Assembly (NCBI GenBank): GCA_017512805.1
Contig: JAFWES010000032.1
Coordinates: 1 to 57,502, forward strand
Direction of reading: 5' to 3'
Source: Clostridia bacterium
GTDB lineage: Bacteria; Bacillota; Clostridia; Christensenellales; Aristaeellaceae
DNA length: 57,502 nt
Shown: piece after piece, positions 5,411 to 52,456 of the stretch
Layout: each line of letters begins with the position of its first letter
Position numbering within the stretch: the stretch's first letter is position 1
Made by a program: the position numbers and the translations under genes
The notes under the pieces: model-generated
What the model was told of the DNA's origin: nothing
Databases searched by the model: none
The model's input: only the letters and a program-made list of their open reading frames with translations

Positions 5411-5524
5411 TAGGGGGAAGCGATAATATTTTTCTGGTCTAAATTTGTCCAGTTAAACCGTTATAAAAACCAATTTTCCCGCTTATTCTGCCCGTTTGGA
5501 GTGAAAACGTGTTTATTCTTTGCC

Positions 5525-5554: not shown

Positions 5555-5588
5555 AAGGAACAGTCAGAAACGGAGTGAAAGGGATCAG

Positions 5589-6644
5589 ATGAAACGAATC
5601 AGCAGCAACGATATTGCCAGGTTGGCAGGTGTTTCCCGCAGCACGGTCAGCCGGGTCATCAACGGATACAGCAACGTTCCGGAAGAGACATATGACCGGG
5701 TCATGCGCGTCGTGCGGGAACAGCACTATTATCCCCAGATCTCCGGGCGCCAGCTCAGCGGCAAGGGCAGCAACACCCTCGGGCTGTTCTGGGTCGGCGA
5801 GCCGAACATTTCCCAGGCCCAGTTTTCCAGCAATATGTTCATGATCGTCGTGGACGCCGCCGCCCAGCGGAATTATCTGACGCTGGCTGATATCGTCCCG
5901 AATCTGTCGGAAGAAAAGTACGCGAACCATATCCGCCGTGTGTTCTCTGAAGGGCGCATCGACGCGGGCATCATCATCGGAGCCAGCAATGAAGAGCCCC
6001 TGATGGACGAGCTGCCCGAAAAAGGCTATATCATCGGCATTCACGATTATTTCCGGGAAGAGGACGCGCAGCCCCTGCGGCTTTCGGTGAATTATGACCG
6101 GGACACCGGAGAGCAGATCATCGATTATCTGTATTCCCTGGGGCACCGGAAAATCGCGATCCTCAATGGGGATCTGACCCATCAGAGCTGTCTGGACCGC
6201 TATCAGAGTTTTATTCGCGGCATGACGAAGCATAATCTGCCCCTGCGGAATCAATGGATGGCGTACGGGGGATATCATATGGACCCGGCGTACCGGGGGG
6301 CCATGCAAATGCTCTCCGCCTGTATGTCCGATCTGCCGACGGCCATCTGCGCCAACAACGATACCGCCGCCAGAGGGGTTTACAAGGCCTGCGCCGAGCT
6401 GGGGCTCCGGGTGCCGGACGATATTTCCGTATTCGGAATCGACGATGAGCCCGCCGCCTCCATGGTCATCCCCCCGCTGAGCACCTTTGCCATCGATACC
6501 CGGAAGATGTTCTTCTCCCTGGTCAACCGGGTGCTGGATACCCTGGAGGGAAAAGAAAACGTCCCGCAGACGGAATTCATCCGCGGAACGCTGCTGCCGA
6601 GAGGATCCTCGGCGCCGCCCCGGAGCGATCGCGCAAACGGATAA
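5589..6644 (+). CDS. LacI-family transcriptional regulator
   Basis: 351 aa. Seen: N-terminal LacI helix-turn-helix (residues 4-40: SNDIARLAGVSRSTVSRVIN, hinge region following), then a periplasmic-binding-like effector domain with the typical C-terminal block (TAICANNDTAARGVYKACAE, DDISVFGIDDEP). The start at 5589 follows AAGGG and places the HTH at the very N-terminus; a frame from 5520 would add 23 unrelated residues. Known: LacI proteins repress sugar genes and release DNA on binding a sugar. Its divergent neighbour is now a chimeric permease remnant (4296-5315) behind an intact promoter, so the regulator may have lost its main target. The ligand cannot be told. Confidence 0.92.
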   Translation: MKRISSNDIARLAGVSRSTVSRVINGYSNVPEETYDRVMRVVREQHYYPQISGRQLSGKGSNTLGLFWVGEPNISQAQFSSNMFMIVVDAAAQRNYLTLADIVPNLSEEKYANHIRRVFSEGRIDAGIIIGASNEEPLMDELPEKGYIIGIHDYFREEDAQPLRLSVNYDRDTGEQIIDYLYSLGHRKIAILNGDLTHQSCLDRYQSFIRGMTKHNLPLRNQWMAYGGYHMDPAYRGAMQMLSACMSDLPTAICANNDTAARGVYKACAELGLRVPDDISVFGIDDEPAASMVIPPLSTFAIDTRKMFFSLVNRVLDTLEGKENVPQTEFIRGTLLPRGSSAPPRSDRANG

Positions 6645-6692
6645 CCTGCGTATGGCCGGGCGGTACGCGGCTCCCCCTTTCCCCTGTGCTCA

Positions 6693-6720
6693 ACCCTGGA
6701 TTCGTTCCAGGGTGTTTTTT
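6693..6720 (+). terminator. Terminator of the LacI-type regulator gene
   Basis: Seen: arms ACCCTGGA (6693-6700) and TCCAGGGT (6706-6713), 5-base loop, then a run of T. It sits between convergent genes and ends at the stop codon of the MATE gene. Confidence 0.88.
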
Positions 6721-8082
6721 TCAGGCCTGCCCTTCGTAGAGGTCGCTGCGGGTGATGTTTTTGGCCCATTTGCCCGAAAAGTAGTGCCGAAGCACCCAGG
6801 GCCATTTCACAAACTCGTCGGTACACAGCAGGAAATAAACCCACATGACGGGCAGCTTCAGCACGAAGGCCGCCAGAAAGCCCAGCGGAAGCGCGTACCC
6901 CCACATGTCAACCGTATCGCAGATCATGCCGAAACGGGAATCCCCGCCGGCGCGGAACACGCCGGCAATCAGCGTCGTGTTGACGGCCGCGCCCCAGATG
7001 TAATAGGTATTGATCAGCATCATCTTCCGCAGATACTCCGCGGCCTCCGGCGTCAGGTCGGCGAAAGCGAGAATCAGCGGAATCAGGCACAGAATAATGA
7101 CGGAACCCGCAGCGGCGGCCAGCAGGGTCATGATCATCAGTTTCTTGGCGCCGGCTTTCGATTCCTCGATTTTTCCCTCTCCCAGCAGATTGCCCAGAAT
7201 AATGCCGGAGGCGCTGCCCACCGCGAAGCAGAGCACCGTTCCGAACTGGCGGACGATGTTCACGAAGGAGTAGGCGGCGACGGCGTCGTTGCTCAGATGC
7301 CCGATGATCGCTGAATACAGGGAGAAGGCCACTCCCCAGCTGACGTCGTTAAGGAGCGCGGGCAGCGCCATGCGGAGAAAATCGCCAAAAAGAATCCGGT
7401 TGCTGCGGAAAATACAGGAAAACCGCAGGCGGATATCCCGGCTGCGCGAGGAAACGAAAAAGCAGCCCAGCAGCAGAATGATCCGGGAGAGGCTCGTCCC
7501 CAGCGCGACGCCCACAACGCCCAGTTTCGGCGCGCCCAGCAGCCCGAAAATGAAGACCGCGTTCAGCAAAATATTGCTCACGAAGGCGATGATGTTCAGC
7601 ACCGTGCAGACCGTGACCCGCTCCGCGCTGCGCAGGGTCGCCATGTACACCTCCGAAACGCCCCAGCAAAGGTAGCTCACGGAAACCGCCCGCAGATAGG
7701 AAGCTCCCAGCGCGATCAGCTCCGGATCCGGCGTAAAGAGCCGCATCATGGCTTCCGGGATCAGCACGGCCGCCAGCGCAAAAGCGCAGGCGGCGCCCAG
7801 GGAAAAGCGCAGCGCGATGCCCTGCACCAGATGGACCGCCTCCAGGTCGCCTTTTCCGTGATACTGGCTGGCGAGCATGGTGACCCCCGTCCCGATTCCG
7901 TAAAGGATCATAAAGAGGATGCTGGTATAGTTCGCCGCCAGGGAAACCGCCGAAATCGATGACTGCCCCACATAGTTCAGCATAATGACGTCCGTCGAAG
8001 CGATGGTGGCGGACAGAAGATTCTGTACCACAATCGGCAGCGTGATGCGGATCGCGTATCGGTAAAATGAATCCTTCAGCAT
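6721..8082 (-). CDS. MATE-family efflux transporter
   Basis: 453 aa, the usual MATE length. Seen: two repeated bundles with about twelve hydrophobic segments. The start (residues 8-45: YRYAIRITLPIVVQNLLSAT) and motifs such as FGTVLCFAVGSASGIILGN in the second half follow the MATE pattern. Known: MATE proteins export drugs or metabolites in exchange for Na+ or H+. Start ATG at 8082 with GGAAGGAA 2-10 bases upstream; a frame from 8142 adds 20 charged residues and runs through a leader hairpin. The gene is convergent with the LacI-type gene and shares no operon partner. The leader holds a strong hairpin (8102-8137) that might attenuate transcription. Substrate unknown. Confidence 0.9.
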   Translation of the reverse strand: MLKDSFYRYAIRITLPIVVQNLLSATIASTDVIMLNYVGQSSISAVSLAANYTSILFMILYGIGTGVTMLASQYHGKGDLEAVHLVQGIALRFSLGAACAFALAAVLIPEAMMRLFTPDPELIALGASYLRAVSVSYLCWGVSEVYMATLRSAERVTVCTVLNIIAFVSNILLNAVFIFGLLGAPKLGVVGVALGTSLSRIILLLGCFFVSSRSRDIRLRFSCIFRSNRILFGDFLRMALPALLNDVSWGVAFSLYSAIIGHLSNDAVAAYSFVNIVRQFGTVLCFAVGSASGIILGNLLGEGKIEESKAGAKKLMIMTLLAAAAGSVIILCLIPLILAFADLTPEAAEYLRKMMLINTYYIWGAAVNTTLIAGVFRAGGDSRFGMICDTVDMWGYALPLGFLAAFVLKLPVMWVYFLLCTDEFVKWPWVLRHYFSGKWAKNITRSDLYEGQA

Positions 8083-8101
8083 GGTTCCTTCCTTCCCCGC
8101 T

Positions 8102-8137
8102 AAAAGAGCTGGCAACATCCTGTTGTCAGCTCTTTTT
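8102..8137 (-). promoter_or_regulatory. Strong hairpin in the leader of the MATE gene (possible attenuator)
   Basis: Seen: a 12-bp stem (8106-8117 with 8121-8132, one G-U pair, loop of 3), flanked by A and T runs on either side so that it can look like a terminator on both strands. No plus-strand gene precedes it, and on the minus strand it lies 20 bases before the MATE start. Its arm shares the 17-mer TGTTGTCAGCTCTTTTT with the terminator at 35148-35186. Confidence 0.5.
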
Positions 8138-8291
8138 ATCATATGAACATCGGAATTGCAACATATCCCTCCAAAAAACTTTGTCTCCTCTCCCTCCGGA
8201 TTCTCCCCACGCGCTCCGATCTTCCGGATCGGCGCCGACGCTGATCCAATCCGTCAGCCATTCGATGTGACCGAAGCAGGGCTAAGCCGGA

Positions 8292-8942
8292 TCACATTCC
8301 AAGAAGCCCTTCCCGGATCAGTCCTCTGGCCACGCAGGCGGCAAACTGCTCCGCTCCCGCTCTGCGCGTGTGAGCGTTATCGCTGAGCCCCTCCGGATAG
8401 CGTGGATCTTCCCCCGGGGCCACATGCATGAAGAAGGCTTTGCTGCCCTCTTCCCCGGCGCTTTCAACGATGCGGAAGCTGTCCCGGTAGATGTCCAGCA
8501 GCGGTACGTCCATCCTCTGCGCCAGCTGGCGCATGGCGTCCTTGTATTCCCCATGGGTCTCCTGCAGGCAGCCGTTTTCCCACACCCGCATGCAGATGGG
8601 CGTCAGCAGAACCGGAACAGCGCCGCGATCCCGGGCAAAGTTCACAAACACGGTCAGATTGTCGGTGTATGTGGTCCATGGCTCCGTATGGCGTTCCGGC
8701 TTATCGCTTTCATCGTTATGGGCGAACTGGATCAGCAGCAGATCGCCGGCATGGATGCGCTGATCCATTTCCTGCAGCCGGCCCTCGGACAGAAAAGACC
8801 GGGTGCTTCGGCCTGCCTTGGCATGGTTGCGGACGCTGACCCCGGGCAGATCATCCTCCAGCAGCTGTCCCCATCCGACCATCAGCGTTTCCCGGGGATC
8901 ATAGGTTTGCGCGGTAGAATCACCGCAGATAAAGATGTTCAG
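8292..8942 (-). CDS. SGNH/GDSL hydrolase, rhamnogalacturonan acetylesterase type (CTG start)
   Basis: 216 aa. Removes acetyl groups from sugar residues. Seen: block I GDSTAQTY near the N-terminus with the nucleophilic Ser, block II-like NHAKAGRSTRSF, block III IQFAHNDESD, and a late Asp/His pair near YPEGLSDNAHTRRAG, the order of the rhamnogalacturonan acetylesterase group. There is no signal peptide, so it is probably cytosolic. The family N-terminus begins exactly at a CTG codon (8942) placed 7 bases after GGAGG; no ATG, GTG or TTG fits. The stop of the GH2 gene is 13 bases upstream, and the gene is the last of the pectin operon. It is only distantly similar to the other SGNH protein at 12182. 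Confidence 0.85.
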   Translation of the reverse strand: MNIFICGDSTAQTYDPRETLMVGWGQLLEDDLPGVSVRNHAKAGRSTRSFLSEGRLQEMDQRIHAGDLLLIQFAHNDESDKPERHTEPWTTYTDNLTVFVNFARDRGAVPVLLTPICMRVWENGCLQETHGEYKDAMRQLAQRMDVPLLDIYRDSFRIVESAGEEGSKAFFMHVAPGEDPRYPEGLSDNAHTRRAGAEQFAACVARGLIREGLLGM

Positions 8943-8955
8943 GGGATTCCCTCCT

Positions 8956-11900
8956 TTACAGTGTGATGCGCAATGCGCCGATCCTGTCGTCGAACTGCGC
9001 TGACGCGCCTTCCACATAAGGCGCGATGGCATTGATTTCCATGACCAGGATGCCTTCCCGGGTGAGGAAAGGCTGACCGGCCATCAGGCTTTCCCGCCCG
9101 TCCGCGATCATGTGCGTCCCTCCCACCCGGGCGATGACGCTATGCGGTCCGGAACGCAGGGTCAGCACACCGGAGGCCCGGTCCCATCCATAATCCATCC
9201 GCTCCGGGGCGATGCTCTTCATTCGCTCCAGAACGCACAGCACATTGCCCCAAACCGCGCCGTCCCGGTACACGGCCCTGACGCCCCGGAAATCGGGCTC
9301 CTGGCCGTTAACCAGCACCTTGCAGTAGTTTTCGTCTTCCGGAACGTACTTGACCGCGTCCGCTTCGGGAATGGGGGCGGCCCAATCCTCTGAGGCAGGG
9401 GGCAGCCGGCCGGGATCGGCATAGAGCACCGCCGGCGCTTCGCCGGCGCAGGCAATGGTACGAATCGTGATTTCGGCCTGGGGAAGGCCCGGCGCGGCAG
9501 CGGTCAGATGAACGGCGCCCGCGGACCGGCCCGCCCGCAGCAATACGCGGTTTGTGCCGCATTCGGCATATACATGGGGCTGGCCGATCACGCTGTCCTG
9601 CCGCCCGTTGCCGTTGAAACGGCCGCTGTTGTAGCCGCCCAGGAAAACGGCGGGACCCTTCAGGGCAAAATCGATGCGCATGTCCGCCAGGGGGCAGACG
9701 CGGCCCTGGGCATCCGTCACCGCAACGTCCACATAGCACAGATCGCTGCCGTCCGCCCGCCAGCCGTCCGGCCCGGAATGGGCCTCAAGGCAAAGCGCCG
9801 CAGGGGCGCCCGCCGTCTCTATCCGGTCCCGGCAGGCGATTTCTCCGTCATAGCCATAGCCCACGGCCTCGATCACCCCGTTCCGGGTGACATCGATCTT
9901 CCTGAAGGCAAAGATGAACCCGCTTTCCGGCTTTTCACACCGGCCCGCCAGCCTGCCATTGATATACAGCAGAACTTTTTGGACCGCGTAGCTGCCCACG
10001 CAGTACACGGTTTTATGGCAGGGGTCGCGGAATTCCGGCTCCGGCGTTTCCTCCCAAAAGCTGCCATTGAACCGCTTTTTCCAGGCGCGGTAGTTTTGCC
10101 CGTCCGGCCGGGGATAATTCCAGTGGCCCAGAAGCTTGACCGCCGGAGCCGCGCTGTGCATCACCCGGAAGACGTCATAACTCTGCTTTTTGACCCGAAT
10201 CGCATCCACCCGTCCGCTCATCCGGCCGTTCTCGCTCCAGCTCTGGCGGCCATGCTGGGCGGAATCGGTCCAGCACAGGGCAGCGCAGGCGCTGTACAGG
10301 TTTTTGCCGGAGGCGCCGCCGATGCGGTCAAAGAAAAACTCGCTGTAGCCCCTGGCGTTAGCCAGGGCCAGCTCTTCGCTGGTCAGATCGTAAAAATCCA
10401 GCCCCTTCTGTTTTTTCCCGCCTTTGCCAATCCAACGGTTTCGGTAATCAAAATCCGGGGGTGAAAAATCATCCCAGACGCGGCGGGGAGCCTCTTCCCG
10501 GCTGTACTCCGTCTCCGTCACCGGGCCGTGCTCCGCCAGGAAACGCGCGGCATGGCGGTTCAGCATGGTGCCGACATACTCGCTTTCATTCAGGGCATCC
10601 TCGGTGTTGAGGGTGCGGCAGCCCATGAAGCGCCCCCCGCAGGGATCCAGGGCCTGTTTAAGCAGGCGCATTTCCCGCATATGTTCGGCGGAGATGGCGT
10701 TGTTTCCGGCTTCCCAGAACAGGATGGAGGGATGATTACGATAGGCGATGATGACATTCCGCATCAGTTCCACCCGCTGATCCCACTGGCGGCCAAAGGT
10801 TTCCCGCTCCTTGTCTCCGGCGGGCTGGGCGCAGATCACGCCCTGCCGGTCACAGGCCCGGATATCCATGGGGCTGGCGGCCACGTGCATCCAGCGGATG
10901 TGATTGGCCCCGCTCCCGCGGATCAGCCGCGCATCCATATCATGCATCCATTCGGGCACGACGCCGCTTTCCGCCCATTCGTTCGCCGCCCGCTGGGCAT
11001 AGCCCCGCAGCCAGATGGGATGCCCGTTGATCAGGATGCCCCGGTCCTTGTCGTATCCGACCTGGCGGAAACCGGTCTCGATCACCTGGCTGTCGGTTTC
11101 CGAGCCGTCCGCCTCCAGCGTGATGTTCACCCGGTACAGGCAGGGGTGCGCGGGCTCCCAGAGGGTGAGGCCGGATACCCGGGCCGCGCAGGAGATGATC
11201 TGCGTATCCGCGGAACGGATCTCCGTCGGCGCCACCCGGTCCTCCTCCTCCGGAACGTAATGCGCGGTGGTCTCCTCCCATCGATAGGCGTCTTCCGGCA
11301 CCAGGGAAAGCGGCATGCGGTAGGCCGGGGCGGCGGCTACGGAAACCGGCTCTGAGGCAAAGGCCGCCAGTTCCTTTCCATCGATGGCGCACACCCGGAC
11401 CCGTATACGGCAATTTGCGCTCCCCGCAGACAGATTGCGCACTTCCGCTTCCACATGGATATCGGCTTCGCCGCTCCCGGGCTCGAACTGATCGGCATAC
11501 ACATAGCTGCCCCTGCTCTGCAGATTGGCATACAGGGGCAGCGTCAGATGAATATCCTTTTTGAAATAGACCCTCACCGGCTGGCTGAGCCCGCCAAGGG
11601 TGGGATGAAAATCATTGCAGTTCCAGAAGAAGCCCACGCCCTCCCGATCAGCGGGAACCTTTTCGTCCTGGCTGAGCAGATAGGAGCCGGGGATGACGCC
11701 GGGGGCGTTGGGCGTCTCCGCGATACAGAAAGGAATGTTCCTGGTGCTGGTATTGTCTGTGGCGACGGCGATCACGTTTCTTCCGGAAGGATCCAGGCAG
11801 GGCGTCAGGTCAAAGCCGAAGGGGCCCACACCCATCTCGTCATATCCCGCCAGCGATCCGTTGATATAAACATAGCAGGTCTGGCGGACGCCTTCAAAGG

Positions 11901-44097: not shown

Positions 44098-44879
44098 CTA
44101 TCCCAGCGTCACGTCCAGAATCATCATCAGCACAAAGCCCAGCGAAAACGCGATGGTTCCCCAGTTGGAGTGCTTTCCCTCAGACATCTCCGGGATCAGC
44201 TCTTCCACCACCACATACATCATCGCGCCTGCCGCGAAAGCCAACAGATAGGGCATGATCGGTACCACCGCGCCCGCAGCCACGATGGTGACGGCTGCCG
44301 CGATTGGTTCCACCACGCCGGAAAGGACGCCGTAGAGAAAGGTTTTCCCTTTGCTCATGCCCTCTGCGCGCAGCGGCATGGAGACAATCGCCCCTTCCGG
44401 GAGATTCTGAATGGCGATACCCAGAGCCAGGGTCAGAGCGCCGGCTGAAGTAATACCGCTGTTGCCGGACAAGAAGCCCGCGTATACCACGCCGACTGCC
44501 ATGCCTTCCGGAATGTTGTGCAGCGTGACCGCCAAATCAGCTTCGTGGTCCGTTTCAGGCCAGACTTTGGGCCTTCATCCTGCTGATCCATGTGCATGTG
44601 CGGTGTGATGATATCCAAAAGCAGCAAAAAGCCTACACCAATCAGAAACCCAACGGCAGCGGGCAGGAAGGCCAGCGTGCCCATATGCTCGCTGCTCTCC
44701 AGGGCAGGCTGCAGCAGGCTCCAGAAGGATGCCGCTACCATGACCCCTGCCGCAAAGCCTGTCAGAACCTTCTGCAGGTTCTCGGAGATGCTTTTCCGCA
44801 GAACGAAAACGAGGGCGGCGCCAAGGCTGGTGCCGAAAAAGGGAATCAGGATGCCCAGTAAGATTTCAGTATTCATCAT
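44098..44879 (-). pseudogene. ZIP-family metal transporter gene, frameshifted
   Basis: Seen: the first frame from ATG 44879 gives TEILLGILIPFFGTSLGAAL, ENLQKVLTGFAAGVMVAASF, FLLLLDIITPHMHMDQQDEG and KSGLKRTTKLI. At about 44540 the frame shifts by one base and continues AVTLHNIPEGMAVGVVYAGF (with the metal-site HNIPEG), GIAIQNLPEGAIVSMPLR, VVEELIPEMSEGKHSNWGTI to a stop at 44098. Joined, the two make a full ZIP protein of about 260 aa with both HN/QN-x-PEG motifs. One missing base in a T run (ATTTGGCG) explains it. Known: ZIP carries zinc or iron into the cytosol. A sequencing error cannot be excluded. Confidence 0.82.
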
Positions 44880-45306
44880 GGTATTCAACGCTTTCTCCGG
44901 ATTCCGGCGTTCACAGCCAAAACCGCCAGGCAGGCCAGTCCGCAAGTCAGCAGGAACATAGAAATGATCCGGCTTACACGGATCCGTCTGCTTATCCAAA
45001 TATAGCACAAAACCGCGCTTTACACAACCCAGCCGCCAAGGCCATGCCGCGGGCGGTACCTGCTCAGCTCAAGGGCCGAGCACAGGGCTGTATGCTCGCT
45101 CCCCTTTCCCGCGGGGTTATGCTCCGCAGGTTTTTTCGGTTGAAATACAGCTGAAAAGCAGATAGAATAAGGGCGAACCAGAAAGCTGGCAGCCTGTGAG
45201 TCCGGAAAAGCGCTTGAGAACATGCCTGTTATTCCTGGGCTGGACACCAACAGGTTCACGGTCCCACGAGCGCTCCGCGGTCTAAAGCGAGGATGGTGTT
45301 TGATGA
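44880..45306. other. Intergenic stretch with promoter and long leader
   Basis: A 427-base stretch without a called gene. It contains the promoter at 45140-45168 and a leader of about 130 bases for the DUF523 gene. A GC-rich imperfect hairpin followed by TTTTTT (about 45110-45136) could end transcription from the left. On the minus strand a short membrane-like frame ends just upstream of the ZIP start but has no convincing start and was not called. Confidence 0.4.
45140..45168 (+). promoter_or_regulatory. Promoter upstream of the DUF523 gene
   Basis: Seen: TTGAAA (45140-45145), 17 bases, TAGAAT (45163-45168). The gene starts about 130 bases later. Confidence 0.65.
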
Positions 45307-45741
45307 ATGAAGATCATGGTCAGCGCGTGCCTCCTGGGCGAAAACTGCAAATATAACGGCGGCAGCAATCGGAACGAAACGCTGCTGCGCAGTCTGGCCG
45401 GGCATGAGGTCATTCCTGTTTGTCCGGAAGTGGCCGGCGGTTTGCCTGTGCCCCGGGTTCCTGCCGAGATCGTGAACGGAACGGTCACAAACCGCGAAGG
45501 GCAGAATGTGGACGCAGCCTTCAGAGCAGGCGCAAATGCCATTCTGGAACGGGCGAAACGGGAGCGGCCGGATTTGATCATCCTGCAATCACGCAGTCCG
45601 AGCTGCGGGGTCAGAGAAATCTATGACGGTTCTTTCAGCGGAAAGCTGATTCCCGGGCAGGGCGTTTTTGCCGCGCTCGCGTGCGAAGCCGGATTCGCGG
45701 TCATAGATTGTGAGGCGTTTCTGCGAAAGGATGCGCAGTGA
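45307..45741 (+). CDS. DUF523 family protein
   Basis: 144 aa, the normal length for this family. Seen: the Cys-rich signature MVSACLLGENCKYNGGSN at the N-terminus, VIPVCPEVAGGLPVPRVPAE, and LIILQSRSPSCGVREIYDGS, with the four conserved Cys residues of DUF523. Known: the family (YbbK-like) is widespread and its biochemical role is not established. A GAGG lies 14 bases before the ATG, a weak spacing; an ATG five bases earlier is out of frame. Convergent with the DUF4956 gene, 17 bases apart. Confidence 0.9.
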   Translation: MKIMVSACLLGENCKYNGGSNRNETLLRSLAGHEVIPVCPEVAGGLPVPRVPAEIVNGTVTNREGQNVDAAFRAGANAILERAKRERPDLIILQSRSPSCGVREIYDGSFSGKLIPGQGVFAALACEAGFAVIDCEAFLRKDAQ

Positions 45742-45758: not shown

Positions 45759-46430
45759 TTACATTTCGTTTCGTGCGTCCGGAATTCGGCCCAGGGATAC
45801 GGGCAGATTGCCGTTGCGCGTCCGCACCGCGTCCAGGAACGCTTTATCGTTCTGGTTGTTCCCGGGCGTCACCCGATAGGTCAGCTGGTATGCCGTTCCC
45901 ATCTCAATCGTCCGCACGCCGGTCAGTTCGCAGGAGGAGAAATGCTCTCCCAGCAGGTCATCGAACAGGCCGTCATAGTCCAGCGCTTCCGGAATGGTGA
46001 TCCGCAGCTCCCGCTGGCTGTCCAGTCCCCTTCCGAAATGGGTCACCTGGAGAAGGATCATCGCCACCGCATACACCAGAAGAAGGAGGCAGGCGATCCC
46101 TACATAACCCGCGCCAAGGCAGAGCCCGAGGGACGCCGAAAGGAAGACGGCCAGGATTTCCTGCCCGCTTCCCTGGGCGGAGCGGAAGCGAATCAGGCTG
46201 AAGGAACCGGCTACCGCGATTCCCGCGCCGAGGTTGCCGTTGACAACCATGATCACCGTGCTTGTAATGAGGGGGAGAATCACCAGGGTATAGGCAAAGC
46301 TCCTTGTGGCGTTTTTGTTCTGCCTCATATAGAGGATCGAGGCGATCAGGCCCAGCGCCACCGCCAGGCCAAGAACCAGCAGTACATTTCCGATGCTCAG
46401 GCTCCTGTTGGCAAAAATACTGTCAAGCAT
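45759..46430 (-). CDS. DUF4956 membrane protein
   Basis: 223 aa. Seen: four hydrophobic segments in the first 135 residues (SIGNVLLVLGLAVALGLIAS, FAYTLVILPLITSTVIMVVN, AVAGSFSLIRFRSAQGSGQE, GYVGIACLLLLVYAVAMILL) with the family block FSLIRFRSAQGS, then a cytosolic alpha/beta domain (~140-223: LRITIPEALDYDGLFDDLLG). Known: DUF4956 genes are regularly found beside VTC-domain and CotH genes; function undefined. Its ATG lies 8 bases inside the VTC gene end, so they are coupled. Last gene of the operon starting at 50213. Confidence 0.9.
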   Translation of the reverse strand: MLDSIFANRSLSIGNVLLVLGLAVALGLIASILYMRQNKNATRSFAYTLVILPLITSTVIMVVNGNLGAGIAVAGSFSLIRFRSAQGSGQEILAVFLSASLGLCLGAGYVGIACLLLLVYAVAMILLQVTHFGRGLDSQRELRITIPEALDYDGLFDDLLGEHFSSCELTGVRTIEMGTAYQLTYRVTPGNNQNDKAFLDAVRTRNGNLPVSLGRIPDARNEM

Positions 46431-47136
46431 AAAGCACCTCCAGGCTCTTCGGCCGGATATATTTCAGATAAGCCAGACCGTACTTGGAAAAATGAGTCCG
46501 TTCCGCGTCAGCCGCCTGCAGGAGGCGGCTGAGCCACAGCGGGTACGTTCCGTCCGTCTTGATCTCCATGATGCGCTGGGACGGCAGGATCAGGGCGGCA
46601 TTGGGATCCCTGCTGGTCAGGGAATAATCCGACTGCCGGAAGGAAAGATTCCGGTCGAAGGTGATTCGGATATCAGGCCATCTGTCCGAGAACCAGGCGT
46701 CCCGGTCATAGGTGATGACGGCTTTCGGCCGCAGCCCGTACCGGCGCACCATCCATTCGGCCTCCTGTCCCACCTGACCGCCTTCCGGGCCGACGCGGCC
46801 GCTGTTCAGGCCGATGAAAGCGGCTTCGAGCGGCTGCTGGACCCTGCGTTTGTAGACCACGCCTTTGTATTTCTTCTTGACTTCAATAAAGGACATGGTC
46901 ACCTTCTCCGGTTTCCCGTACGCCCGAAGGCGGAGCTTCTCCTTGTACACGGGCCGGTCCAGAGAGGTACGGATCAGCTGATAATCCGATGTATCGTAAT
47001 ACAGGCTCTGGACGGTCGGATCTCCGAAATCCATCCATCGGAAGCCCTGCTTCTGAAGCGCCTCTTCAATATAACGCTCCTGGGCCACCGTCAGCATATA
47101 CTTGGTTTCAACCCTCGCAAAGCTTTCTTCCGCCAT
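46423..47136 (-). CDS. VTC-domain protein (polyphosphate-polymerase-like)
   Basis: 237 aa. Seen: a tunnel-type VTC/CYTH fold signature: RVETKYMLTV at the N-terminus, SLYYDTSDYQLIRTSLDRPV, YKEKLRLRAYG, SFIEVKKKYKGVVYKRR and IMEIKTDGTYPLWLSRLL. The basic and acidic residues that bind phosphate chains and metal in yeast Vtc4 appear kept (ETK, KLRLR, EVKKK, EIK). Known: Vtc4 makes polyphosphate from ATP; bacterial short forms are mostly uncharacterised. ATG 47136 has AAGGGGG 8 bases upstream; a TTG at 47142 lies in the overlap with the preceding gene. Predicted cytosolic, next to the DUF4956 membrane protein. Confidence 0.9.
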   Translation of the reverse strand: MAEESFARVETKYMLTVAQERYIEEALQKQGFRWMDFGDPTVQSLYYDTSDYQLIRTSLDRPVYKEKLRLRAYGKPEKVTMSFIEVKKKYKGVVYKRRVQQPLEAAFIGLNSGRVGPEGGQVGQEAEWMVRRYGLRPKAVITYDRDAWFSDRWPDIRITFDRNLSFRQSDYSLTSRDPNAALILPSQRIMEIKTDGTYPLWLSRLLQAADAERTHFSKYGLAYLKYIRPKSLEVLYA

Positions 47137-47138
47137 CG

Positions 47139-48821
47139 TCAACGCCCCCTTCTTTGTCCGCCGTTGCCGTGTCCGTTTCCGTTCCAGTTTCCAAATCCAT
47201 TGGTGCCCAAGCTCTGGGTGCCCATCATGCTGGCGGTGACCCCGCCCTCAAACAGACTGCTGCCGCCGGCTGTCACGCGGATCTGCGCGTTTTCCTGGAT
47301 GCTCTCCCCCGCAATCAGCAGGGAATCATAGGATTGCATGGGCGTGAACGTGCCCAGCGTCTGACCGCTCCCGTCCTGTATGATGATGGTCTGCCCGGAA
47401 GCGCCCGCGCCGTTCAGCGGGATGGAAACCAGTGACGCGCCGGAAATGCGGGATGTGTCCGTCATCGTGCCGTTTACGCTGGTGATCATGACCAGTCCGC
47501 CCGAGATACTTCCGGTTCCATTGAAGTCGATGGCTCCTTCTCCCATGCTGGTCGCAGCCCAGACGCCGGTGACTCCGCCGGTAATGCTGATGCTGCCGTT
47601 GCTGTCCAGTCCGTCGCCGGAGGCTGTCACCTCCACATGGCCGCCGTTGATGGTCAACGTTCCGTCCGAGCCGGCGAACCTGTCATTGCCGCGGCCGCCC
47701 CAGCCCGAGCCGTCGCTGCCGCCGGACGCGTTGATTCCATCGTCGGAGGCGATGATCTGAATCTCTCCCCCGTTGATCGTGACATTTGTGCCTTCGATCC
47801 CTTCGTAGCATTGGGCAATCGCAATCACGCCCCCGTTGATGACCGTTTCCGTATCCCCGTGGATGCCGTCGTCGCCGGTCCGGATGTTTACCGTCCCGTC
47901 GCTGACGGTGACATTTGCCGCGTGCAGTCCGTCGTCAGCGCAGTCGAGCGTGATTTCCCCGCCCAGAACCGTCAGATCCGTCGCAGCCTTGATACCCTTC
48001 TGGGATGCCTCTGTGTCGGAGGAAGAAACCGTATTATTCCAGTCCCAGCCGCCGCGATTAAACCCATGGCTGTTGGCGGAAGCCCTGACTTCTCCGGCTC
48101 CTTCGCCGGTCCGGATCTCTGTTTTCCCTCCCGCGATCACCAGCCAGCCCTTCCCCTCCTTGTCCTCGCGGGTGGAGACGATTCCGTCGCCCCCCGCGGT
48201 CACGGATATGCTTCCATCCAGCACGAGCACGGAATTCCGCCCCCGAATCCCGTCATTCACGGAATCCACCGTGATCTCCCCGCCCGCGATGATCAGGTCC
48301 GCCTTGCTCTGAATGCCGTGCTTTACGGTTCCATGGGCCAGAAGGCGGCCCGTTCCGTTGATGGAAAGATCATCCTCCGCGTACAGCGCGGCGCCGATGG
48401 TATCGTCTCCTTCGGTGATGGCGGCGCCGTCCGTCAGAATGTTCTCGGTGCCTTCGGCCAGGGTGATGATCAGTTTGTCGCCCTGCTTCTCGTAAATCGC
48501 GGGTCCCTCCGGGCTTGTGATCTGGACGCCATTGAGAATCAGCCGCACCTTATCTTCCACGCCGGTCTGGATCACCACCTGGCCGACCCATGTGCCCGAC
48601 AGCACATAATCCCCCTTCTGTGTGATGACCAGTTCCGTGCCGTCCAGGGCCGCCAGGTCGATGAACTCCGCCTCGGCTTCGTCCCAGGTGTCATCCGTAT
48701 CCTTTTCCTTATAAAGGCTGCTTACATCCAAACCTTCCTCCGCCGCGGCGGTGGCGCTCAGCGAAAACGAGCATGCGATCAGGCACAGGCAGGCCAGCAT
48801 CGCGATCAGACGCTTTTTCAT
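47139..48821 (-). CDS. Secreted Cthe_2159-type carbohydrate-binding beta-helix protein
   Basis: 560 aa. Seen: signal peptide at residues 1-26 (MKKRLIAMLACLCLIACSFS, cut near ATA-AA), then many turns of a right-handed beta-helix built from repeats such as ISITGGVTGV, LTINGGHVEVTASGDGLDSN, VTISDG-like DGTVNIRTGDDGIHGDTETV and NGGEIQIIASDDGINASGGS. The 'DDG-I' corners are calcium-binding in the Clostridium thermocellum protein Cthe_2159, which binds cellulose and pectin. The C-terminus ends in a Gly/Asn/Arg-rich tail. GGAGGAGG precedes ATG 48821; a longer frame from 48896 lies inside the small membrane gene. Overlaps by 4 bases with the gene upstream. A surface adhesin or matrix component is likely. 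Confidence 0.88.
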   Translation of the reverse strand: MKKRLIAMLACLCLIACSFSLSATAAAEEGLDVSSLYKEKDTDDTWDEAEAEFIDLAALDGTELVITQKGDYVLSGTWVGQVVIQTGVEDKVRLILNGVQITSPEGPAIYEKQGDKLIITLAEGTENILTDGAAITEGDDTIGAALYAEDDLSINGTGRLLAHGTVKHGIQSKADLIIAGGEITVDSVNDGIRGRNSVLVLDGSISVTAGGDGIVSTREDKEGKGWLVIAGGKTEIRTGEGAGEVRASANSHGFNRGGWDWNNTVSSSDTEASQKGIKAATDLTVLGGEITLDCADDGLHAANVTVSDGTVNIRTGDDGIHGDTETVINGGVIAIAQCYEGIEGTNVTINGGEIQIIASDDGINASGGSDGSGWGGRGNDRFAGSDGTLTINGGHVEVTASGDGLDSNGSISITGGVTGVWAATSMGEGAIDFNGTGSISGGLVMITSVNGTMTDTSRISGASLVSIPLNGAGASGQTIIIQDGSGQTLGTFTPMQSYDSLLIAGESIQENAQIRVTAGGSSLFEGGVTASMMGTQSLGTNGFGNWNGNGHGNGGQRRGR

Positions 48822-49018
48822 TTCGAATCCTCCTCCTTCTTCCATCTCAGGATGCTCTGGCCCATGCCGCTGACGCACAGCCCGGCAAGGAGCCATCGGG
48901 AAATATCATTGTTGATGAAATTCATCATGGGGTTAAACTGATCCAGAATTAGAAAGGTCAGAAACATGAGGGAAAAAATCACACACAGATGGGTGAACAC
49001 ATTGTACAGCTTATTCAT
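48818..49018 (-). CDS. Small two-helix membrane protein
   Basis: 66 aa. Seen: two hydrophobic segments, about 10-27 (HLCVIFSLMFLTFLILDQF) and 40-55 (ISRWLLAGLCVSGMGQSIL), joined by an Asn-rich loop, and a charged end RWKKEEDSK. It overlaps the gene before it by 8 bases and the gene after it by 4 (ATGA), which argues that it is real and translated with them. Family not recognised. Inferred: a membrane partner of the secreted or membrane proteins of this operon. Confidence 0.7.
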   Translation of the reverse strand: MNKLYNVFTHLCVIFSLMFLTFLILDQFNPMMNFINNDISRWLLAGLCVSGMGQSILRWKKEEDSK

Positions 49019-50213
49019 ACGACTTCACCTCCGTAATCAGTAACGCGTCGCTGGACTCCCGGCCACCGCCCGAGGGCTGATTGATAATTTCATCCTGCCA
49101 TACCATGATGGACGAATTGCCTCCGTCCAGGTTATAGGCTGCCTTGCAGCCCAGGTCGCTGAACAGCTGGGACAGCTGCGGAAGCGTGATCCCGGCGGAT
49201 TCTCCCCGCCCGTCCACAACCACCATGCAGTAATGGCCTGGTTCATAATAGCCGATCGCCGTTCTGGGATTCGCGGATAGTATCCGGCTGGTGCTGGAAA
49301 AGCTCGTCAGCACGCTTCCGTCCGTATCCAGCAGCGCCGGACCGAACGTCCAGGCCTGCCAGGCCCCCTCCGCGATCGCTTCCTCGACGGAAAAGGAGGA
49401 TCCCGGCATCACCCGCATGGAACCGTCATAATACAGGACGCATACATCGCAATTGGTGGGATTGGCCCTGTAGATGACGCCGTTGCGGATCACGACGCCC
49501 TCATTGGTATTTCCGTAATAATCTCCGTTGATCGCGATCAGGGCATTGTTCAAAAGCGCCATATCCTCAATGGAATCCCGGTATCCGCTGCCGAAGGTGT
49601 CCTTTGCGATGGCGGATCGGAAGGCGGTAATATCCCGGATATAGATATCCGCAAGATAGTAGGTAATCCTTCCTCCCGCGGTCGTCTCCTCGGTGACCGT
49701 GATCGAAACGTCCGGGCTCGAATAGCTGTTTTCTGTCACGATGACTTCATCGGTATAATGCTCCGCGAACTTCTCCGTCATCGGGGTCTCATCCTCGTCG
49801 GAGGCTTCCTCATCGGAGGCTTCCTCCTCCCCGGCTTCCGTCAGCGCGCTTCCGCCTTTTGAATTCATCCCGTTCCGCCCGTTATTCCTATTGTTATTGT
49901 TGTTCCTTCCCCTGGCGGTTATTTGCGTCGACTGTCCGCCGTCCGTAACCGTCCATGTCCCGGCCGTATTTCCCGCGGACGCGAGTATCATGCTGGGATC
50001 GATTTTCCCTGCGGAACCGCTTGTATTCTCCCCTTCCCCGCTGTCCTCCGTCTGCACTTCATATGGATTGGGAATGACGATCCCTACGCTCTCCTGTTTC
50101 CTGGGCAAAACATGGTGAAACAGCGCAAAGATCACCAGTGCGATTCCGGCACAGAGAATATCCACAGCCAGATTTCTCAGGACGGGATGCTTTCCTTTCT
50201 TCCCCGTTTTCAT
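49011..50213 (-). CDS. Phosphodiester glycosidase (NAGPA-domain) protein, membrane-anchored
   Basis: 400 aa. Seen: one N-terminal membrane segment (LAVDILCAGIALVIFALFHH), a long low-complexity linker (RGRNNNNNRNNGRNG and Glu/Asp-rich EEEASDEEASDEDE), then the NAGPA domain (~200-395): ALIAINGDYYGNTNEGVVIR, AWQAWTFGPALLDTDGSVL, RTAIGYYEPGHYCMVVVDGR, CKAAYNLDGGNSSIMVWQDE, RESSDALLITE. Known: this domain uncovers phosphodiester-linked GlcNAc in animals and acts on sugar phosphodiesters in bacteria, for example on teichoic acids. Facing outside. First gene of the operon, behind a promoter with a two-component box. Confidence 0.9.
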   Translation of the reverse strand: MKTGKKGKHPVLRNLAVDILCAGIALVIFALFHHVLPRKQESVGIVIPNPYEVQTEDSGEGENTSGSAGKIDPSMILASAGNTAGTWTVTDGGQSTQITARGRNNNNNRNNGRNGMNSKGGSALTEAGEEEASDEEASDEDETPMTEKFAEHYTDEVIVTENSYSSPDVSITVTEETTAGGRITYYLADIYIRDITAFRSAIAKDTFGSGYRDSIEDMALLNNALIAINGDYYGNTNEGVVIRNGVIYRANPTNCDVCVLYYDGSMRVMPGSSFSVEEAIAEGAWQAWTFGPALLDTDGSVLTSFSSTSRILSANPRTAIGYYEPGHYCMVVVDGRGESAGITLPQLSQLFSDLGCKAAYNLDGGNSSIMVWQDEIINQPSGGGRESSDALLITEVKSYE

Positions 50214-50424: not shown

Positions 50425-51696
50425 CTATTTTGCGGCGGGAAATGTCAGGCTGAACGTCGTTTGCCTGTCCTGGGATTCCACCTGAATCAGCCACCGGTGC
50501 TGATCCGCGATTCCTTTGGCGATCGCCAGGCCTAATCCGTAGCTGTTTCCGCTGTACTTTCTGGAAGCGTCCGCCTTGTAAAAGCGGTCGAAAATATGCT
50601 GCAGGGCCTCCGGTGGGATGGTGTCTCCCCTGTTCGTCACGGAAAGGGTGATCGGCATGCCGCCGTTCTTTCCTTTCAGGGGCTGCGGAGCCGTCAGGGA
50701 AACCTGAACCTCGCTGTTCTCCTCGGCGTGCTTGATCGCGTTGTCCAGCAGAATTTTGGCGATCTGCCCGAGATCCTCCGGATAGCCGGAAACCGGCATC
50801 ATATCCGGCAGCTCAAGGTTCAGGGAAACCCCGTGTTCAAACGCGACGCTTTCAAAGGGCAGCGCGATTTCCATAATCGATTCAACCGCGTCAAAGCGGC
50901 TCGCCTGCTGCTTTTCAGCCGCGTTCCCGGCCTCATCCAGTTCCGACAGCTTCAGCAGCGCCGTGACCAGGCCGGACATCCTTTGGGACTCGGTCTGGAT
51001 ATAGCCAAGCCACTTGTTCTTCCCGATACTCTTTTCAAGGACTGCGGCATTGGCGTCAATGACCGTCAGCGGCGTTTTCAGCTCATGGCTCGCGTCAGCG
51101 ATAAAGCGTTTCTGGGCCTGCATGCTTTTTTCCACCGGCGCTGTGATCCGCTTTGCAAGGCTGTTGGCCAGCAGCGCAAATAATCCACACGCCGCCAGGA
51201 AGCCCAGGATGGAGGTCAGCATATACTCCCGGGCTTCCGAGTAAATGGAGGAGGGATTCAGAACAACCAGCAATTTCCCCTGGCTGTTTTCTCCGAGCCG
51301 ATACATCCAGTTCATCCAGGACCCGCGCGTTTCATCCGCTGAAAGGACGTAGCTGATCAATTCGGTCAGCCTGCTTTCATCGTTCCAGAATTCACTCACG
51401 CCCGTGATGGACGTCATGTTCCCCTCAGCATCCAGCTGAATGAAACCCAGTTCATCCGCGGAAACGGACCGCAGCAATTCCGATTTTCCGCGGTGCCGGT
51501 TATCCCGATTCTTTCCGATTCCATACGCATTCGCGGGGCTGTACATCACTTCTGCGGCGGAATCAAGAATTCTGTCAGCCTTTTCAGCCGTCTGGATCAG
51601 ATTCAGCCCGTTCAGGGCAATGATGATCACAAACAGCACCCCCGCGGCGCTGAAAAAAATGCTCCGGAAAACGCTTTTCCGTAATGTGCTAATCAT
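50425..51696 (-). CDS. Sensor histidine kinase
   Basis: 423 aa. Seen: first membrane helix at ~12-33 (SIFFSAAGVLFVIIIALNGL), an extracytoplasmic sensor part of about 125 residues, second helix at ~160-178 (GFLAACGLFALLANSLAKRI), then the H-box FIADASHELKTPLTVIDAN (~198), N-box ILLDNAIKHAEENSE, and G-boxes FDRFYKADASRKYSGNSYGL, GLAIAKGIAD. Autophosphorylates on the His and passes phosphate to the regulator at 51689. Its start overlaps the regulator end by 8 bases. The sensor part is not a recognised domain. It shares a shape with BaeS/SaeS-type kinases. Confidence 0.95.
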   Translation of the reverse strand: MISTLRKSVFRSIFFSAAGVLFVIIIALNGLNLIQTAEKADRILDSAAEVMYSPANAYGIGKNRDNRHRGKSELLRSVSADELGFIQLDAEGNMTSITGVSEFWNDESRLTELISYVLSADETRGSWMNWMYRLGENSQGKLLVVLNPSSIYSEAREYMLTSILGFLAACGLFALLANSLAKRITAPVEKSMQAQKRFIADASHELKTPLTVIDANAAVLEKSIGKNKWLGYIQTESQRMSGLVTALLKLSELDEAGNAAEKQQASRFDAVESIMEIALPFESVAFEHGVSLNLELPDMMPVSGYPEDLGQIAKILLDNAIKHAEENSEVQVSLTAPQPLKGKNGGMPITLSVTNRGDTIPPEALQHIFDRFYKADASRKYSGNSYGLGLAIAKGIADQHRWLIQVESQDRQTTFSLTFPAAK

Positions 51697-52378
51697 GCTC
51701 GCCGGCCTCCAGCTGGTATCCTACGCCGCGGATCAGTCGAATGGTTACATTTGTTTTGGTGTACTGCATCTTCTTTCGCAGAAACGAGATGTAGACGTCC
51801 ACATTGTTGTACTCCGCGTCGCTGTCATATCCCCACACCCGTTCGGTGATCTGTTCCCGGCTGAGAACCCGCCCGGGATTGAGCATCAGGTATTCCAGCA
51901 GCTTATATTCCTTCGCGCTCAGCCGGACGGAACGGGTTCCGCCTTCGCATTGGATGGTATACGTCTTCGTGTCTAAAAGGAGATCGCCCACATGGAGCCG
52001 GTCATTCTCCACCTGATGCTCGCCGCGGCGCAGAACCATCCGGATTCGGGCCAGCAGCTCTTCCAAAGCAAAGGGCTTTGTGACATAGTCGTCCGCTCCC
52101 ATGTCCATGCCTTCCACTTTGTCATCCAGGGCGGATCGGGCTGTCAGCAGAATAATCGGGATATGATTCTTCTCCTTGCGGACGCGCCTGAGCACCTCAA
52201 AGCCATCCATCTGCGGAAGCATGACATCCAGAATGATCAGATCATATAAGCCCGTCAGAATCATGTCCAGCCCGTCCGCGCCGTTATCCGCCCCTTCCGC
52301 CTCATAGCCTTCCCCGGCCAAAGAGGTCATCAGGGCCTCCCGCAGCCCCTCTTCGTCTTCAATCACCAGAAGCTTCAC
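51689..52378 (-). CDS. OmpR/PhoB-family response regulator
   Basis: 229 aa. Seen: receiver domain 1-115 with acidic pocket IEDEEGL, phospho-acceptor Asp in DLIILDVMLPQMDGFEVLRR, Thr in PIILLTARSALDD and Lys in DDYVTKPFALEELLARI; winged-helix DNA-binding domain 128-225 (VRLSAKEYKLLEYLMLNPGR, VLSREQITERVWGYDSDAEY, NNVDVYISFLRKKMQ, IRLIRGVGYQLE). GTG start at 52378 with GGGAG 5 bases upstream. Upstream box TTCAAT-ACTAT-TTCCAT followed by a -10 at 10 bases is the kind of site this family uses; an almost identical box precedes the NAGPA-VTC operon. So it probably controls itself and that operon. Confidence 0.95.
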   Translation of the reverse strand: MKLLVIEDEEGLREALMTSLAGEGYEAEGADNGADGLDMILTGLYDLIILDVMLPQMDGFEVLRRVRKEKNHIPIILLTARSALDDKVEGMDMGADDYVTKPFALEELLARIRMVLRRGEHQVENDRLHVGDLLLDTKTYTIQCEGGTRSVRLSAKEYKLLEYLMLNPGRVLSREQITERVWGYDSDAEYNNVDVYISFLRKKMQYTKTNVTIRLIRGVGYQLEAGEHD

Positions 52379-52423: not shown

Positions 52424-52456
52424 AGTATATCAAACAAGCATGGAAATAGTATTGAA
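52424..52456 (-). promoter_or_regulatory. Two-component box and promoter of the response regulator gene
   Basis: Seen on the minus strand: TTCAAT-ACTAT-TTCCAT (52456-52440), 10 bases, then TATACT (52429-52424). No -35 box. A palindrome GAAAACCG ... CGGTTTTC (52454-52474) overlaps the upstream edge. Confidence 0.78.

What the first reader, a model, noticed from the sequence alone, without database searches (positions are those of the whole stretch)
45759..50213. Candidate undescribed surface system: NAGPA, small membrane protein, Cthe_2159 beta-helix, VTC and DUF4956 under one sensor
Five overlapping genes combine an outward-facing phosphodiester glycosidase, a 66-aa two-helix protein, a secreted calcium/carbohydrate-binding beta-helix, a polyphosphate-polymerase-like enzyme and a DUF4956 membrane protein. 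VTC and DUF4956 are often neighbours (usually with CotH, absent here) but have no agreed role. Tight coupling suggests a machine: for instance phosphate-chain synthesis feeding modification or anchoring of a surface matrix, switched by an envelope-sensing kinase.
Basis: partly seen in the sequence, partly recalled or inferred. Interest (0 to 1): 0.8.

Follow-up and report, generated by a model that had tools for sequence, protein, structure and literature searches.

The report
Regulated phosphate-chain and surface-sugar operon
Five overlapping genes in a gut bacterium combine a probable polyphosphate-making membrane unit, a secreted sugar-binding protein and a sugar-phosphate-cutting enzyme with its own small membrane partner; the set recurs in related bacteria and probably modifies the cell surface, but its function has still to be tested.

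Summary
In detail: five overlapping genes (NAGPA, a 66-aa two-helix protein, Cthe_2159, VTC, DUF4956) behind an OmpR-type two-component system. But it is a mosaic of modules rather than one fixed five-part machine. (1) VTC-DUF4956 is the core: adjacent in 83 of 85 loci, co-diverging (r=0.84), residues matching yeast Vtc4 R264/R266/E426 kept. (2) Cthe_2159 fills a slot that CotH often fills beside more distant VTCs. (3) The 66-aa protein belongs to NAGPA, not VTC: it directly follows a NAGPA gene in 37 of 39 testable loci, and 20 of 20 longer stretches read outside VTC clusters show no VTC. This cassette is shared by two VTC lineages that are not sisters, and its other neighbours probably make or use polyprenyl-phosphate sugars. 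(4) An exact box, TTCAATACTATTTC(A/C)AT, occurs twice in 3.07 Mb, before the regulator and before NAGPA; a related species has it at both places. Best reading: a regulated envelope operon in which VTC-DUF4956 makes and probably exports polyphosphate while NAGPA and its partner cut sugar-phosphodiesters outside. Polyphosphate, export and the NAGPA substrate are inferred; no structure could be predicted.

The parts
51689..52378 (-). OmpR/PhoB-type response regulator gene (229 aa, GTG start)
   Evidence: Pfam Response_reg and Trans_reg_C; best NCBIfam match PhoB but below its cut-off
50425..51696 (-). sensor histidine kinase gene (423 aa; two membrane helices around an outer domain of about 125 aa)
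   Evidence: Pfam HisKA and HATPase_c; hydropathy
52440..52456 (-). predicted response-regulator box TTCAATACTATTTCCAT, 61 nt before the regulator gene
   Evidence: one of two exact matches in 3.07 Mb; same 17 bases before the regulator gene in L139
50283..50299 (-). predicted response-regulator box TTCAATACTATTTCAAT, 69 nt before NAGPA
   Evidence: the other exact match; same 17 bases before NAGPA in L139
50380..50403 (-). intrinsic-terminator-like hairpin between the kinase and NAGPA
   Evidence: number of such sites in the region is as in shuffles; a hairpin with T run is also at this place in L139 (read by eye)
49011..50213 (-). NAGPA / DUF2233 phosphodiester glycosidase (400 aa; one N-terminal membrane helix, catalytic domain about 222-393)
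   Evidence: Pfam E 1.6e-32; PDB 3ohg and NAGPA chains 6pkg, 6pki, 6pku, 6pky; R317, R336, N361, D363, G364, G365 in 23 of 23
48818..49018 (-). 66-aa two-helix membrane protein, partner of NAGPA (no Pfam family)
   Evidence: directly downstream of NAGPA in 37 of 39 testable loci
47139..48821 (-). Cthe_2159-family secreted beta-helix (560 aa; signal sequence, possible lipobox)
   Evidence: Pfam E 1.7e-73; PDB 4peu/4phb E 9e-34; hydropathy of the N terminus
46423..47142 (-). VTC-domain enzyme, polyphosphate-polymerase-like (239 aa; TTG start, or ATG at 47136)
   Evidence: Pfam E 1.1e-34; profile hits yeast Vtc4 3g3q E 4e-14; R71, R73, E193 align with Vtc4 R264, R266, E426
45759..46430 (-). DUF4956 membrane protein (223 aa; hydrophobic N-terminal part, invariant R81 and R83, non-hydrophobic C-terminal part after about residue 130)
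   Evidence: Pfam E 1.3e-14; alignment of 70; hydropathy

Best explanation
A two-component-regulated envelope operon built from modules. VTC (cytosolic) and DUF4956 (membrane) form one unit that makes phosphate chains from ATP and probably passes them outwards, as the eukaryotic VTC complex couples polymerase to membrane channel. The secreted Cthe_2159 solenoid is the outer client of that unit, in the slot that CotH often occupies beside other VTC-DUF4956 pairs. NAGPA, tethered outside by one helix, works with the 66-aa two-helix protein on sugar-phosphodiester bonds at the membrane face, most likely polyprenyl-phosphate-linked sugars or phosphoglycans. The regulator binds an 11-bp direct repeat before its own gene and before NAGPA, so the system makes or remodels a phosphate-rich, sugar-decorated surface on cue. 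Shown here: gene content, co-conservation, kept catalytic residues, the NAGPA-66aa pairing, two VTC lineages sharing the cassette, the paired boxes. Inferred: regulator binding, polyphosphate as product, outward export, the NAGPA substrate, the kinase signal, the physiological role.
For: VTC-DUF4956 adjacency in 83 of 85 distinct loci with at least 4 kb on each side and correlated divergence r=0.84 over 84 loci, against 0.44 for VTC-Cthe_2159. Vtc4 R264, R266 and E426 (changed together to impair catalysis in the structure paper, PMC9911596, passages) align with R71, R73 and E193, each 56 of 56. The window genome also has a PPK1, so a second polymerase suggests a special purpose. The 66-aa protein directly follows NAGPA in 28 of 30 order-wide loci and 9 of 11 class-wide loci, the other 2 of the 11 being cut by contig ends. 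GT2-GtrA genes (polyprenyl-P-sugar synthase type) lie within 225 nt of NAGPA in 9 of 20 non-VTC loci and near it in two VTC loci. A GT-C-like gene (one of 11 members hits PMT_2, E 4.9e-6) is in 11 of 17 VTC loci with the 66-aa gene. VTC tree and NAGPA tree disagree: architectures A and B are apart in VTC and together in NAGPA. Boxes. An OmpR-type regulator lies within 4 kb in 37 of 85 loci; the window genome has 10 such domains in 3.07 Mb.
Against: No biochemical test of any bacterial VTC-DUF4956 pair was found in the searches made. DUF4956 has no credible match among solved structures (best E 0.83) and no model could be made. Bacterial VTCs carry R-x-E-x-K near the N terminus where Vtc4 has R-x-T-x-K, so chemistry or acceptor may differ. 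The GT-C-like gene was not found in this genome (88% complete) and L035, L036, L042, L072 and L100 also lack it in the stretch held; ten of its 11 members do not reach PMT_2. The support for NAGPA A+B monophyly is modest (0.714). The NAGPA-66aa pair occurs mostly without VTC, so its tie to phosphate chains rests on 17 loci; the 13 of them fetched by G handle are all from the window's own family. Seven of 19 NAGPA-bearing VTC loci have no 66-aa gene. L035, L038 and L044 carry a less similar two-component system at the other end, so the regulator is not fixed. Two 66-aa homologues (L192, L204, one genus) have no NAGPA within 1.5 kb.
Confidence: 0.5

Rival explanations
1. VTC does not make free polyphosphate. 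With DUF4956 it passes phosphoryl groups from ATP to a membrane carrier or a surface glycan, and the extracytoplasmic partners (CotH, Cthe_2159, NAGPA) act on that phosphorylated product.
For: E12 (R-x-E-x-K; 55 of 56) differs from Vtc4; a canonical PPK1 is present; the neighbours act on or bind glycans; in streptococci and clostridia the same pair with CotH adjoins a Pel polysaccharide operon (PMC7112168, passages).
Against: The residues that could be lined up with the Vtc4 active site (R264, R266, E426, K200, K281) are kept; none of the seven genes is a recognised phosphoglycan polymerase.
Confidence: 0.22
2. Plant-fibre operon: Cthe_2159 binds pectin or cellulose for attachment, NAGPA trims dietary or host phosphoglycans, and VTC-DUF4956 is only a phosphate buffer carried along.
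For: Many of the loci are from ruminant-gut metagenomes (titles); the solved Cthe_2159 protein is from a cellulolytic Clostridium (recalled) and matches well.
Against: VTC-DUF4956 is the fixed part and Cthe_2159 the exchangeable one; the same pair occurs with CotH.
Confidence: 0.13
3. Phosphate storage: intracellular polyphosphate under a PhoB-like system, with the outer proteins co-transcribed for unrelated reasons.
For: The regulator scores best against PhoB and the kinase against PhoR models, both below cut-off.
Against: PPK1 is already present; NAGPA, the 66-aa protein and Cthe_2159 are membrane-bound or exported by their sequence; the gene set is kept in other genera.
Confidence: 0.1
4. 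Chance neighbours with no shared function.
For: Many of the loci are metagenome contigs; Cthe_2159 and NAGPA also occur elsewhere in the genomes.
Against: Conserved neighbourhood across genera, overlapping frames, cassette shared by two VTC lineages, shared promoter box.
Confidence: 0.03

Closest known systems
CotH / polyphosphate-polymerase (VTC) / DUF4956 / DUF4832 accessory genes of Gram-positive Pel loci (PMC7112168, passages)
   Same: contiguous VTC-type and DUF4956 genes joined to an extracytoplasmic partner and an exopolysaccharide context
   Different: no CotH in this genome, Cthe_2159 in its place, NAGPA with a 66-aa partner, an adjoining two-component system, and no Pel gene noticed near it (Pel was not searched for)
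C. perfringens NELoc-2: VTC, gene annotated tubulin/FtsZ, CotH, glycosyltransferase (PMC2879425, PMC11677781, passages)
   Same: VTC followed at once by a gene of 222-226 aa placed in the cytoplasmic membrane (probably DUF4956; my inference from size and place) with CotH and glycan genes near
   Different: that locus holds sigma-factor and anti-sigma genes rather than a two-component system in the passages seen; no Cthe_2159 or NAGPA is listed there
Eukaryotic VTC complex (Vtc1/3/4)
   Same: VTC catalytic domain with matching catalytic residues, and a membrane partner
   Different: no SPX domain; the membrane part is a separate DUF4956 protein with no sequence match to Vtc1 or any solved chain
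Cthe_2159 family (PDB 4peu, 4phb)
   Same: about 220 residues of the beta-helix protein align, E 9e-34
   Different: 560 aa here against 313 in the solved chain, and tied to VTC-DUF4956
Mannose 6-phosphate uncovering enzyme / DUF2233 (PDB 3ohg, 6pkg)
   Same: catalytic domain and motif residues
   Different: tethered by an N-terminal helix and paired with a 66-aa two-helix protein

Membership tests
VTC polyphosphate polymerase | VTC/TTM domain over the family cut-off | tested here: met
   120.5 bits against 23; Vtc4 structures hit by profile
VTC polyphosphate polymerase | catalytic residues R264, R266, E426 of Vtc4 | tested here: met
   aligned with R71, R73, E193, each 56 of 56
VTC polyphosphate polymerase | makes polyphosphate from ATP | not testable with these tools
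   needs an assay
Eukaryotic VTC complex | SPX domain and VTC1-type membrane helices | tested here: not met
   Pfam finds VTC alone above its cut-off; DUF4956 profile matches no Vtc chain
CotH-VTC-DUF4956 accessory cluster | adjacent VTC and DUF4956 | tested here: met
   46423-47142 and 45759-46430 overlap by 8 bp
CotH-VTC-DUF4956 accessory cluster | CotH kinase gene in the cluster | tested here: not met
   0 CotH matches in the held genome, 88% complete
CotH-VTC-DUF4956 accessory cluster | Pel operon beside it | not tested
   no Pel model was run
NAGPA / DUF2233 phosphodiester glycosidase | family domain with conserved catalytic motifs | tested here: met
   113.5 bits against 25; R317, R336, N361, D363 in 23 of 23; that these are the catalytic motifs is recalled
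NAGPA / DUF2233 phosphodiester glycosidase | cuts a sugar-1-phosphodiester | not testable with these tools
   substrate unknown
Cthe_2159 carbohydrate-binding family | family domain over cut-off and match to the solved structure | tested here: met
   247.6 bits against 25.8; 4peu E 9e-34
Cthe_2159 carbohydrate-binding family | binds polysaccharide and calcium | not testable with these tools
   recalled property of the family; not tested
PhoBR phosphate system | equivalog score for PhoB and PhoR | tested here: not met
   PhoB 214.9 of 296.2 needed, PhoR 135.1 of 334.2

The most novel reading that the evidence does not exclude
VTC-DUF4956 is a minimal bacterial polyphosphate polymerase-exporter. 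It delivers phosphate chains to the outer face as scaffold or phosphoryl donor for exchangeable extracytoplasmic clients (CotH kinase, Cthe_2159 solenoid), which would explain how a compartment without ATP gets its phosphoryl donor; here it is coupled to a NAGPA-66aa unit that recycles or remodels polyprenyl-phosphate sugars.
Probability: 0.22. Interest if true: 0.87.

Novelty: new variant of a known kind. Interest (0 to 1): 0.6.

Why it matters
VTC-DUF4956 pairs recur in many Clostridia and I found no assigned role for them in the papers searched. This locus shows what is fixed (VTC-DUF4956), what is swapped (CotH or Cthe_2159) and what is added (NAGPA with a small protein), which makes the role directly testable: co-express two genes and look for exported polyphosphate. 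The 66-aa family is a specific partner, without a Pfam name, for a class of bacterial phosphodiester glycosidases of unknown substrate. The paired promoter box gives a ready expression handle.

Tried and rejected
Rejected: chance neighbours (conserved across genera); anti-phage defence (no PADLOC match for the five proteins); phage cargo (of four proteins scanned, Cthe_2159 not among them, only NAGPA matches PHROGs, two families of unknown function); PhoBR membership (below cut-offs); VTC as the only polyphosphate polymerase (PPK1 present); a VTC-DUF4956-66aa complex (the small protein follows NAGPA); toxin-antitoxin for the 66-aa protein (TsaA 15.9 bits against 100).

Led nowhere: solved structures for DUF4956, the GT-C-like protein and the 66-aa family (nothing credible); literature on NAGPA operons and on CotH with VTC. 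My own CotH model found few members, so CotH statements rest on Pfam. The third box in the genome (two mismatches, 140 nt before a glycosyltransferase 2 gene on contig C9) is what chance would give (about 1.6 expected, my arithmetic with equal bases; the pattern read backwards gives 1 match at the same looseness). The HK-VTC reading frame in L063 holds only part of the kinase and may be a frameshift in the assembly; not used. The background rate of regulators from outer flanks was too small to use (1 of 16 stretches, against 37 of 170 next to VTC), so the whole-genome count was taken, from one genome only. My Cthe_2159 profile undercounts: L144 and L151, counted as lacking it, have it by Pfam.
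Full report
WHAT IS THERE. On the minus strand, in order: response regulator 52378-51689, sensor kinase 51696-50425, then NAGPA 50213-49011, a 66-aa protein 49018-48818, Cthe_2159 48821-47139, VTC 47142-46423, DUF4956 46430-45759. The last five overlap by 8, 4, 4 and 8 bp. Pfam assigns all but the 66-aa protein, far over its cut-offs. A convergent gene of the 2-thiouracil desulfurase family (45307-45741, plus) follows. A hairpin with a T run at 50403-50380 separates the kinase from NAGPA, so there are probably two transcripts.

CATALYTIC STATE. VTC: a profile of 24 sequences (A1) finds yeast Vtc4 (3g3q, E 4e-14; 5iiq, 8i6v, 7ytj). Vtc4 R264, R266 and E426, the three residues changed to impair catalysis in the cryo-EM work (PMC9911596, passages), fall on R71, R73 and E193; K200 and K281 (names recalled, numbering offset checked) fall on K14 and K89. 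In 56 VTC sequences R71, R73, K89, K98, R147, R159, E193, K195, S219 and K220 are in 56 of 56 and K14 in 55. One difference: R-x-E-x-K at residues 10-14 where Vtc4 reads R-x-T-x-K. NAGPA: solved relatives are 3ohg and NAGPA itself, and R317, R336, N361, D363, G364 and G365 of the NPRT, DGR and NLDGG stretches are in 23 of 23. Both enzymes look active. DUF4956: an alignment of 70 gives invariant G27, G75, R81, R83, G102.

NEIGHBOURHOOD SURVEY. Window VTC against 150 relatives: 67 genomes, the window's own included, match at E 1e-10. Together with the window they give 133 distinct VTC loci, 85 with at least 4 kb on both sides. In those 85, within 4 kb: DUF4956 83, Cthe_2159 57 (an undercount), NAGPA 19, 66-aa protein 12 (all with NAGPA), regulator 37, kinase 36, both 34. 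These loci were chosen by similarity to the window VTC, so the shares are not those of VTC genes at large. The window genome has 10 OmpR-type C-terminal domains in 3.07 Mb, so 37 of 85 is a strong excess, though that density is from one genome.

TWO PAIRS AND A CLIENT. Distance matrices of VTC and DUF4956 correlate at r=0.84 over 84 loci; VTC with Cthe_2159 only 0.44. In the 32 weaker VTC matches (25-34% identity) at least 19 have a listed CotH match within about 4 kb and 4 have Cthe_2159 (my reading of the coordinates; both lists were cut, so these are minima). In the 49 stronger matches one has a listed CotH within 4 kb (G041) and one more (G132) by Pfam. Other genes after DUF4956 include a metallo-beta-lactamase-fold protein (L107) and DUF4097 (L158). 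So CotH and Cthe_2159 look like alternative partners of one core.

THE 66-AA PROTEIN BELONGS TO NAGPA. A profile of 18 (A2) finds it in 48 of 396 genomes of the order (60 matches, of which the 30 loci handed out were examined, the window and one other VTC-linked locus among them). NAGPA lies directly upstream in 28 of 30 (exceptions L192, L204, one genus). A profile of 24 (A6) finds it in 10 of 391 genomes of the class, the window's own included; of 11 loci other than the window, 9 have NAGPA directly upstream and 2 are cut by the contig end. In 20 longer stretches outside VTC clusters, all from genomes, 19 of 20 have NAGPA beside it and none shows a VTC (the twentieth, L222, is the same place as L192). 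The family has a first clear hydrophobic stretch, a weaker second one, and between them a loop region; F22, N29, F34 are invariant and H10, M18, D26, M32 nearly so. Net charge averages +1.9 before, -0.7 in and +0.4 after the loop over 24 sequences, some cut short at the C end. This is consistent with a loop on the outer side, where the NAGPA domain would be.

POLYPRENYL-SUGAR CONTEXT. In 9 of the 20 non-VTC loci a GT2-GtrA gene lies within 225 nt of NAGPA, 8 of them co-directional (domains confirmed for L214, L217, L218). The same kind of gene overlaps NAGPA in VTC locus L143 and lies about 0.8 kb from it in VTC locus L048. GT2 with a GtrA/DPMS domain usually makes polyprenyl-phosphate sugars (recalled). 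In 11 of 17 VTC loci with the 66-aa gene, including the nearest relative L139, the same strand carries a further ~490-aa membrane protein that may be a polyprenyl-sugar-using GT-C enzyme: one of 11 members hits PMT_2 at 4.9e-6, the others do not. No member was found in the window genome (the tool warns that an empty answer without a control shows little). NAGPA is described as releasing phosphodiester-linked sugars (PMC12419801, passages).

CASSETTE SHARING. Architecture A (window, L139, L095 and others: NAGPA-66aa before VTC) and B (L059, L060, L069, L070, L072: after DUF4956) have VTCs that are not sisters. In a tree of 132 sequences A is a clade (0.998; it takes in L037, cut by its contig end) and B lies inside a 0.999 clade with VTCs lacking the pair; A+B span 62 tips. 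Their NAGPAs group together, 18 of 18 (support 0.714; 1.0 when L205 joins; 53 sequences). Window identities: NAGPA 68-76% to A and 63-64% to B; VTC 58-66% and 40-43%; DUF4956 59-71% and 36-38%. Two different VTC-DUF4956 lineages thus share one NAGPA cassette, which argues for a functional tie.

REGULATION. TTCAATACTATTTC(A/C)AT occurs exactly twice in 3.07 Mb, 61 nt before the regulator gene and 69 nt before NAGPA. L139, another species (VTC 83% identical), has it at both places. Among the other 131 distinct loci a 19-base form has 7 matches with 3 mismatches. Three lie at a VTC promoter: L047 (between kinase and VTC), L110 (just before VTC) and L080 (in the gap between divergent VTC and regulator genes; its regulator and kinase, 325 and 382 bits, are the closest to the window's among the loci). 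Four lie elsewhere (L104, L123, L124, L134), so a 3-mismatch match alone means little; the zone just before VTC is 0.8% of the strand-bases scanned. The pattern is TTTCAAT-N4-TTTCAAT, an 11-bp direct repeat as OmpR-family regulators use (recalled). I read this as the regulator driving both itself and the operon. The signal is unknown.

LITERATURE. Printed notices of the VTC-DUF4956 pair found here: accessory genes of Gram-positive Pel loci with CotH (PMC7112168, passages) and, as VTC beside a gene annotated tubulin/FtsZ, C. perfringens NELoc-2 (PMC2879425, PMC11677781, passages). A VTC gene of C. thermocellum (Clo1313_1989) is among genes with weak signs of convergent change in ethanol-adapted strains (PMC10503014, passage). 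Searches for DUF4956 or VTC domain, Cthe_2159, CotH with polyphosphate polymerase, NAGPA, DUF4353, polyphosphate polymerase domain-containing, DUF2233, phosphodiester glycosidase with operon, and CotH with VTC showed, in the listings and passages seen, no description of this operon or of a small NAGPA partner. The library is open-licence PubMed Central only. The DUF2233 paper (PMC3675612) is not held and is known to me from recall and from a reference list.

LIMITS. Most loci are from draft genomes, many of them metagenome assemblies; gene calls are open reading frames plus profile matches. No structure was predicted. Polyphosphate production, export, NAGPA substrate and regulator binding are untested.

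Noticed in passing
44098-45008 (-): Two overlapping ORFs in different frames (44433-45008, 44098-44535) look like the two halves of one ZIP-type metal transporter (recognised from recall), i.e. a broken gene or a sequencing frameshift.
   Followed up: no
G000, six places: The genome has six NAGPA-domain matches but only one 66-aa partner match, so as far as found only the window NAGPA carries the partner.
   Followed up: partly
L063:8298-10328: One open frame holds HisKA, part of HATPase_c and a VTC domain: a kinase-VTC fusion or an assembly frameshift.
   Followed up: partly
L093 (G000:C9:12000-24000), box at 5657-5673: A two-mismatch copy of the regulator box lies 140 nt before a glycosyltransferase 2 gene followed by a DUF4214 protein; such a match is expected by chance, but it could be a regulon member.
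   Followed up: partly
L107:9950-10795, L117:4458-5312: Some VTC-DUF4956 pairs are followed by a metallo-beta-lactamase-fold protein with a signal-like N terminus in the slot of Cthe_2159 or CotH.
   Followed up: no
L207, L208 (about 4500-9900): Outside VTC loci too, a NAGPA-66aa pair lies beside a two-component system and a second NAGPA gene.
   Followed up: no
L143:9414-9830: A 138-aa membrane-like protein without a Pfam family above cut-off lies between NAGPA and VTC; its group was found in five loci.
   Followed up: no
L047:10429-10447 and L110:3172-3190: Three-mismatch copies of the window's regulator box lie just before VTC in two more distant loci, one of them between kinase and VTC as in the window's order.
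   Followed up: partly
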